NCBI GenBank assembly: GCA_021797495.1
Contig: JAJZZO010000013.1
Location: 1-32,507, forward strand
DNA length: 32,507 bases
Source: Microcaldota archaeon
GTDB taxonomy: Archaea > Micrarchaeota > Micrarchaeia > Micrarchaeales > Micrarchaeaceae
Direction: 5' to 3'
Shown here: positions 31,782 to 32,507 of the stretch, piece after piece
How the letters are laid out: every line of letters begins with the position of its first letter
Numbering within the stretch: position 1 is the first letter of the stretch
Notes under the pieces: model-generated
Databases searched by the model: none
The model's input: the letters and a program-made list of their open reading frames with translations, nothing else
Told to the model about the DNA's origin: nothing
Program-made: the position numbers and the translations under genes

Positions 31782-32000
31782 TTAAAGCGTATAGATTAGC
31801 AAACACAAAATATAATTAGCTAACCCTACGCTTTTCTGGACGCAAGGATTATATATCTTGGGATTTTCTATATTGTGCGTGAGTGATGTGTACCAATCAT
31901 TAAAGTCCTTGAAGCTTGCGTAGACGCCATAGCCAGCGCATGCTCTGCTATTTTTAGCTTTTTCAATGCAAATAGCCTTGGCTTTATTGTTGCGGTTAAT
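31782..32000 (-). pseudogene. possible gene remnant without start codon, cut at the tnpB element
   Basis: A 72-codon open frame on the minus strand ending with TAA at 31782-31784, lacking ATG, GTG or TTG near its beginning. The translation has a protein-like composition (AKAICIEKAKNSRACAGYG, then SFKDFNDWYTSLTHN, IENPKIYNP), and its open frame ends exactly where the inverted-repeat structure (31991-32074) begins. It could be the 3' end of a gene disrupted by insertion of the tnpB element, with the 5' portion lost or beyond the window. It overlaps the tRNA-Leu promoter, and a chance open frame is possible. Confidence 0.25.
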
Positions 32001-32074
32001 TTAACAACGCGAGCGGGAAATCCCACACCCTCTTCAGAGGGTTCCCTTTAGGGGTGGGATGAGAGCGAACCGCA
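31991..32074 (+). repeat. three-way-junction inverted-repeat structure before tnpB
   Basis: Outer stem TGCGGTT (31991-31997) with AACCGCA (32068-32074), extended by CGC/GCG (32008-32010/32065-32067). An inner stem ATCCCAC (32020-32026) pairs with GTGGGAT (32054-32060). It contains two side-by-side hairpins: ACCCTC/GAGGGT with loop TTCA (32027-32042), and CCC/GGG with loop TTTA (32044-32053). Nearly every base of the inner part is paired. In IS200/IS605-type elements subterminal hairpins at the left end are bound by the TnpA transposase. Its position 16 nt before tnpB fits a left end, but a structured leader RNA of tnpB is also possible. Confidence 0.6.
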
Positions 32075-32089
32075 GAAAAGTGTATAAAC

Positions 32090-32507
32090 ATGAATGACGA
32101 TATAAAAGGTATGGAATTGACAAGAGCCTACAAATTCCGAATCTATCCAGATACAAAAAGGCAATCGGGGATAGAGGAAAGTCTGATTCTTGCTCAAAGA
32201 TTCTATAACAAACTTCTTGAGAAATCAATTGATTCATATAAGAAAGGAAATTCAAAGATTTCGATGTCGCAATTCAATCAATCCGTAAAGGAAATAATCG
32301 CCGAGAACAAAGATTTTCTCAAACTTTATTCGCAGACGAGATGCGAGATAGAATACAGGCTTCTGAAGGCATACCAAAACTTCTTCAGGAGGATAAGGGA
32401 AAAGAAGAAAGGAAAGAAGATAAAAGTTGGTTTTCCAAGATTCAAATCACAGGATAGATACGATTCACTAACATATCCTCAGGACAACGGTTCATTCAGT
32501 ATAGAAA
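32090..32507 (+). CDS. tnpB: TnpB, IS200/IS605-family RNA-guided nuclease (5' part)
   Basis: 139 codons are open from ATG at 32090 to the window end with no stop. The alternative ATG at 32111 lies right after AAAGGT and would give the usual short N-terminus starting MELTRAYKFRIYPDTKRQ. The N-terminal KFRIYPDTKRQSGIEESLILAQRFYNKLL and the later KKIKVGFPRFKSQDRYDSLTYPQDNGSFSIE are the N-terminal (OrfB_IS605) domain of TnpB, ancestors of Cas12. The RuvC nuclease, the zinc ribbon, the right end and the guide RNA lie beyond the window. No tnpA gene is seen upstream, so this may be a TnpB-only (IS1341-like) element. Confidence 0.88.
   Translation, partial: MNDDIKGMELTRAYKFRIYPDTKRQSGIEESLILAQRFYNKLLEKSIDSYKKGNSKISMSQFNQSVKEIIAENKDFLKLYSQTRCEIEYRLLKAYQNFFRRIREKKKGKKIKVGFPRFKSQDRYDSLTYPQDNGSFSIE

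What the first reader, a model, noticed from the sequence alone, without database searches (positions are those of the whole stretch)
31991..32074. Nearly fully paired three-way junction in front of tnpB
Three stems (7, 6 and 3 bp) meet without gaps inside a further 7-bp outer stem. TnpA sites usually have one imperfect hairpin, so this is more elaborate. It may be a left end, a riboswitch-like leader controlling TnpB, or an RNA related to guide RNAs but located at the 5' side. No tnpA is adjacent, which makes the question of its recogniser interesting.
Basis: partly seen in the sequence, partly recalled or inferred. Interest (0 to 1): 0.6.

Follow-up and report, generated by a model that had tools for sequence, protein, structure and literature searches.

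The report
Left end of an IS605-type transposon

Summary
The inner fork is real: ATCCCAC/GTGGGAT (7 bp), ACCCTC/GAGGGT (6 bp) and CCC/GGG (3 bp), window 32020-32060. The outer 7-bp stem is not part of it. Its 5' arm (31991-31997) lies in host DNA outside the element, and none of about 40 other copies has it. The fork is the left end (LE) of an IS200/IS605-family element that starts at TTAA(C), 32001-32005. In the same genome a 96%-identical LE stands before an intact Y1 transposase gene (tnpA), then tnpB, then the right end. The same forked LE precedes tnpA in several other Micrarchaeota. The window's copy is a tnpB-only derivative, probably moved in trans. Most relatives, and the right end, have a simpler bulged hairpin of the same design, with compensatory base changes; the fork is that hairpin with a side-stem where the bulged purine sits. 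A riboswitch or leader is unlikely: a TATA box sits 28 nt before the homologous tnpB start, so the predicted transcript begins after the structure, and the LE is kept in copies with tnpA instead of tnpB or with no gene. An insertion of the same family splits pyrD; rejoining the flanks restores the reading frame. Ordinary, with a modest structural variant.

The parts
31991..31997 (+).
   Evidence: Outside the TTAA(C) boundary; absent at all other copies
32001..32005 (+). Target/left cleavage motif TTAA(C) and left boundary of the element
   Evidence: TTAAC precedes the LE in nearly all copies, with unrelated flanks before it; pyrD frame is restored when flanks are joined at TTTAA
32013..32019 (+). 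Region 5' of the hairpin foot (GCGGGAA), where family members carry the guide sequence; role inferred
   Evidence: GGAA directly 5' of both the LE and the RE hairpin; guide function not tested
32020..32060 (+). LE hairpin: basal stem 32020-32026/32054-32060, side stem 32027-32032/32037-32042 with TTCA loop, unpaired T32043, apical stem 32044-32046/32051-32053 with TTTA loop
   Evidence: Folds; 18 forked copies; simple form covaries
32065..32073 (+). Small second hairpin GCG-AAC-CGC 3' of the main palindrome
   Evidence: DNA fold; conserved in most complete copies, 79.6% of cells paired; second LE hairpin known in IS608, ISDra2 and IS605 (PMC5934647)
32083..32088 (+). Predicted TATA box (TATAAA) of tnpB, 28 nt before the homologous start
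   Evidence: Same -28 spacing in 8 of 11 tnpB-only copies listed, the window included
32111..32507 (+). tnpB, 5' part (homologous start ATG 32111; the ORF is also open from ATG 32090); continues on contig C5
   Evidence: Pfam OrfB_IS605, Cas12f1-like_TNB, HTH_OrfB_IS605; 127-base exact overlap with C5

Best explanation
The structure is the subterminal left-end palindrome of a tnpB-only (IS1341-type) derivative of an IS200/IS605-family element, in a MAG most like Candidatus Micrarchaeota. As top-strand single-stranded DNA it folds into a hairpin that a Y1/HUH transposase TnpA binds, while the bases 5' of the hairpin foot help place the cut at TTAA(C). Since the window's copy has no tnpA, the transposase probably comes in trans from the full-length relative in the same genome. 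The fork is the family's ordinary bulged hairpin with a roughly 16-nt side-stem grown at the bulge. Shown: shared ends, linkage to tnpA, boundaries, copies at different sites, covariation of the simple hairpin. Inferred: TnpA binding, guide pairing, mobilisation in trans.
For: The same LE is found in this genome at C20 (window), C10 (different flank) and C18, the last followed by Y1_Tnp (E 7e-38; HVH motif and catalytic Y), tnpB and RE. Forked LE before tnpA also in L030, L032/G047, L050 and G022. TTAAC on the left and GTCAC on the right bound full, tnpB-only, gene-less and fused copies. pyrD is split between C1 and C10, with RE and LE at the two breaks; joining the flanks at TTTAA restores one DHODH frame across the junction. 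The simple LE/RE hairpin of the same design shows 21 both-side-changed cells against 7.2 +/- 2.0 in shuffles. IS608 biology: PMC5934647.
Against: No tnpA in the window copy. The forked copies are too alike to show covariation of the side-stem. The right half of the window's element is read from another contig joined by a 127-base overlap. The exact cut is uncertain by one base (TTAA|C or TTAAC|). No binding or transposition data.
Confidence: 0.95

Rival explanations
1. A cis-acting 5' leader (riboswitch- or thermosensor-like) of tnpB mRNA.
For: It lies just upstream of tnpB and folds stably as RNA.
Against: TATAAA sits exactly 28 nt before the homologous tnpB start in most tnpB-only copies, and a TATA box at about -25 to -30 precedes tnpA in close relatives, so the predicted transcripts start after the structure. 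The same LE stands before tnpA or before no gene at all. No Rfam match.
Confidence: 0.03
2. A 5' guide-type RNA related to the omega/reRNA used by TnpB.
For: LE and RE hairpins share design and sequence, and the RE hairpin is part of the reRNA in known systems.
Against: In characterised systems the RNA comes from the 3' end of tnpB plus RE (PMC8612924). This element has its own RE hairpin downstream of tnpB. The LE lies upstream of the promoter.
Confidence: 0.01
3. A chance fold, or part of the tRNA-Leu/host intergenic region, not an element end.
For: The outer stem does use host sequence; the fold z-score alone is modest (about -2 to -3).
Against: Sequence conserved at unrelated sites across genera, nearly always with an element boundary at TTAA(C).
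Confidence: 0.01

Closest known systems
IS608 / IS605 (Helicobacter pylori), ISDra2: IS200/IS605 family
   Same: Y1/HUH TnpA plus TnpB, subterminal hairpin at each end, insertion 3' of a short T/A-rich target, small second hairpin 3' of the LE palindrome (PMC5934647, PMC8612924).
   Different: Target TTAA(C) rather than TTAC or TTGAT; LE palindrome forked by a side-stem in place of a bulged base; the window copy lacks tnpA.
IS1341-type (tnpB-only) elements
   Same: tnpB alone between intact ends, with a cognate tnpA elsewhere in the genome, as in Halanaerobium (PMC7290912).
   Different: No difference of kind found.
PATEs of Haloquadratum (PMC3119063)
   Same: Gene-less LE+RE copies and fused-end copies occur in related genomes.
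   Different: The window copy itself carries tnpB and is not a PATE.
REP sequences / TnpA-REP
   Same: Foot sequence plus a bulged hairpin recognised by a Y1 protein; an unpaired zone matters for recognition in E. coli (PMC8266576).
   Different: No GTAG foot; these are transposon ends with full tnpA-tnpB elements.

Membership tests
IS200/IS605 family | Y1 HUH transposase TnpA in elements with these ends | tested here: met
   Y1_Tnp 129.9 bits, HVH motif and C-terminal Y, directly between this LE and tnpB at C18. Absent from the window copy itself.
IS200/IS605 family | TnpB with OrfB_IS605 and RuvC-type motifs | tested here: met
   PF01385, PF07282, PF12323; GIDLG, VEKLNI and DRDVNAS motifs
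IS200/IS605 family | Subterminal hairpin at both LE and RE | tested here: met
   LE and RE share the bulged hairpin with a TTTA/TTCA loop; covariation 0.322 against 0.122 in shuffles
IS200/IS605 family | Insertion 3' of a short specific target, no target duplication | tested here: inconclusive
   TTAA(C) precedes nearly all copies.
IS200/IS605 family | Guide sequence 5' of the hairpin foot pairs with the cleavage site | not tested
   GGAA is conserved 5' of both hairpins; pairing not examined
IS200/IS605 family | TnpA binds and cuts top-strand ends | not testable with these tools
   Needs biochemistry
IS1341-type (tnpB-only) derivative | tnpB without tnpA between intact LE and RE | tested here: met
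   Window LE + tnpB + RE on C5, no tnpA between; right half joined by assembly overlap
Riboswitch or leader RNA | Structure lies within the transcript of the gene | tested here: not met
   Predicted TATA box lies downstream of the structure; prediction only, no RNA data
Riboswitch or leader RNA | Conserved with the regulated gene | tested here: not met
   Same LE before tnpA, tnpB or no gene

The most novel reading that the evidence does not exclude
A lineage of Micrarchaeota IS605 elements has turned the bulge of its left-end hairpin into a full side-stem. The right end keeps the simple bulged hairpin, and a 91%-identical TnpA serves an element with a simple LE. TnpA may therefore tolerate or exploit a branched LE, for example to tell left from right or to tune trans-mobilisation of tnpB-only copies.
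Probability: 0.3. Interest if true: 0.35.

Novelty: new member of a known kind. Interest (0 to 1): 0.17.

Why it matters
It settles a structure that looked like a regulatory RNA as a transposon DNA end, and it names the likely transposase. The near-identical TnpA proteins with forked or simple left ends are a natural experiment on what IS605 transposases need from the bulge, which is required in the related E. coli REP system.

Tried and rejected
Outer stem as part of the structure: rejected. Rfam match: only the tRNA above threshold. Covariation inside the forked set: uninformative because the copies are too alike; the broader simple LE/RE set gave a clear signal. The other two Y1 genes of the genome (C5:6856, C11:43748) as recogniser: both proteins are clearly different from the C18 TnpA, and their upstream regions lack this LE. 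Empty site at the window locus: relatives keep the tRNA-Leu flank to about 31974 and show no LE there, but diverge too much beyond it to read the exact joint. ORF-spanning test on the other copies: noisy; only pyrD was decisive.

Full report
Observation. One base (T32043) is unpaired at the junction. The outer 7-bp stem is not part of the same object: 22 bases lie between its 5' arm and the fork and 7 on the other side, and the 5' arm (TGCGGTT, 31991-31997) lies upstream of the element boundary. Compared with the flanks of about 40 other copies, none has more than 5 bp there; about 0.6% of arbitrary 22-base stretches of the window would match as well.

What it is. A DNA search of the window's own genome found the sequence again at C10 (99-100%, different flank), at C18 (96%) and as shorter or partial forms at C1, C13, C19 and C11. 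At C18 it stands 120-130 bases before an intact IS200-type Y1 transposase gene, followed by tnpB and, across a 127-base contig overlap to C15, by a right-end hairpin ending in GTCAC. The window's copy has the same left end directly before tnpB; the rest of tnpB and the right end are on C5, joined by an exact 127-base overlap. In Micrarchaeota genomes the forked left end precedes tnpA in L030, L032/G047, L050 and G022, and a simple hairpin precedes a 91%-identical tnpA in L031. Of 60 related genomes, 32 (counting the window's own) have a match to the left end.

Boundaries and mobility. TTAAC (in a few copies a near variant such as TTATC or TTAGC) on the left and GTCAC on the right enclose all classes: tnpA-tnpB, tnpB-only, gene-less copies of about 170-360 bp (nine read in G038), and fused-end copies of about 60-75 bp. 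In this genome pyrD is split between C10 and C1, with an LE and an RE at the two breaks. Joining the flanks at TTTAA restores one dihydroorotate dehydrogenase frame across the junction; joining at TTTAAC shifts the frame by one. The left boundary is thus known to within one base. At the window locus three same-genus relatives keep the tRNA-Leu flank without the element.

Structure. In most relatives, and at the right end, the hairpin is ATCCCAC, a bulged purine, a 3-bp apical stem and a TTTA or TTCA loop. Twenty-one such LE and RE sequences give 21 cells changed on both sides against 7.2 in shuffles, with a covariation score of 0.322 against 0.122. The forked form keeps the basal stem and the apical CCC-TTTA-GGG and carries the side-stem where the bulge is. 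The 18 forked copies are too alike to test the side-stem by covariation. A small second hairpin, GCG-AAC-CGC, follows at 32065-32073, as described for the left ends of IS608, ISDra2 and IS605 (PMC5934647).

Why not a leader RNA. In 8 of 11 tnpB-only copies listed, TATAAA starts exactly 28 nt before the homologous tnpB start used there (window 32083-32088 for ATG 32111), and a TATA box sits at about -25 to -30 before tnpA in the closest relatives. From general knowledge of archaeal promoters this predicts leaderless transcripts that begin after the hairpin. The hairpin is also kept where tnpB is absent.

Mechanism. From established IS608/ISDra2 biology (PMC5934647, PMC8612924), TnpA binds the top-strand hairpin and cuts 3' of the target motif with help of a guide sequence 5' of the hairpin foot. 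The tnpB-only copy would be moved in trans, as proposed for Halanaerobium (PMC7290912). Binding, guide pairing and trans action are inferred here, not shown.

Verdict. This is the left end of a known kind of element. The fork at the bulge is a modest variant; I did not find it described in the papers read, but ISfinder could not be searched, so no claim of novelty is made for it.

Noticed in passing
G000:C10:1-133 and G000:C1:1-160 (L009, L195): pyrD (dihydroorotate dehydrogenase) is split by an insertion of this element family, with tnpB 3' end and RE on C1 and LE on C10; rejoining the flanks restores the frame.
   Followed up: yes
L153-L157, L161, L163, L164 (G038): Multi-copy gene-less elements of up to about 360 bp with forked LE and simple RE (PATE-like); shorter ones in L154 and L159.
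   Followed up: partly
L168, L169, L171, L185-L187, L190: Mini-elements of about 60-75 bp in which the LE 5' half is fused to the RE 3' half (TTAAC...GTCAC), with a single hairpin.
   Followed up: partly
L013 (G000:C13) and L166 (G043:C15): The LE foot and 5' arm run into the same different sequence (CTTTAGACCGACATAATTGATTTCTCC...) in two genomes, suggesting another gene-less element sharing this left end.
   Followed up: no
C20/C5 and C18/C15 contig ends: Contigs break inside copies of this element with exact 127-base overlaps, so the elements fragment the assembly.
   Followed up: partly
G000:C5:6856-7203 and G000:C11:43748-44101: Two further Y1 transposase-like genes with divergent sequence and without this LE upstream.
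   Followed up: partly
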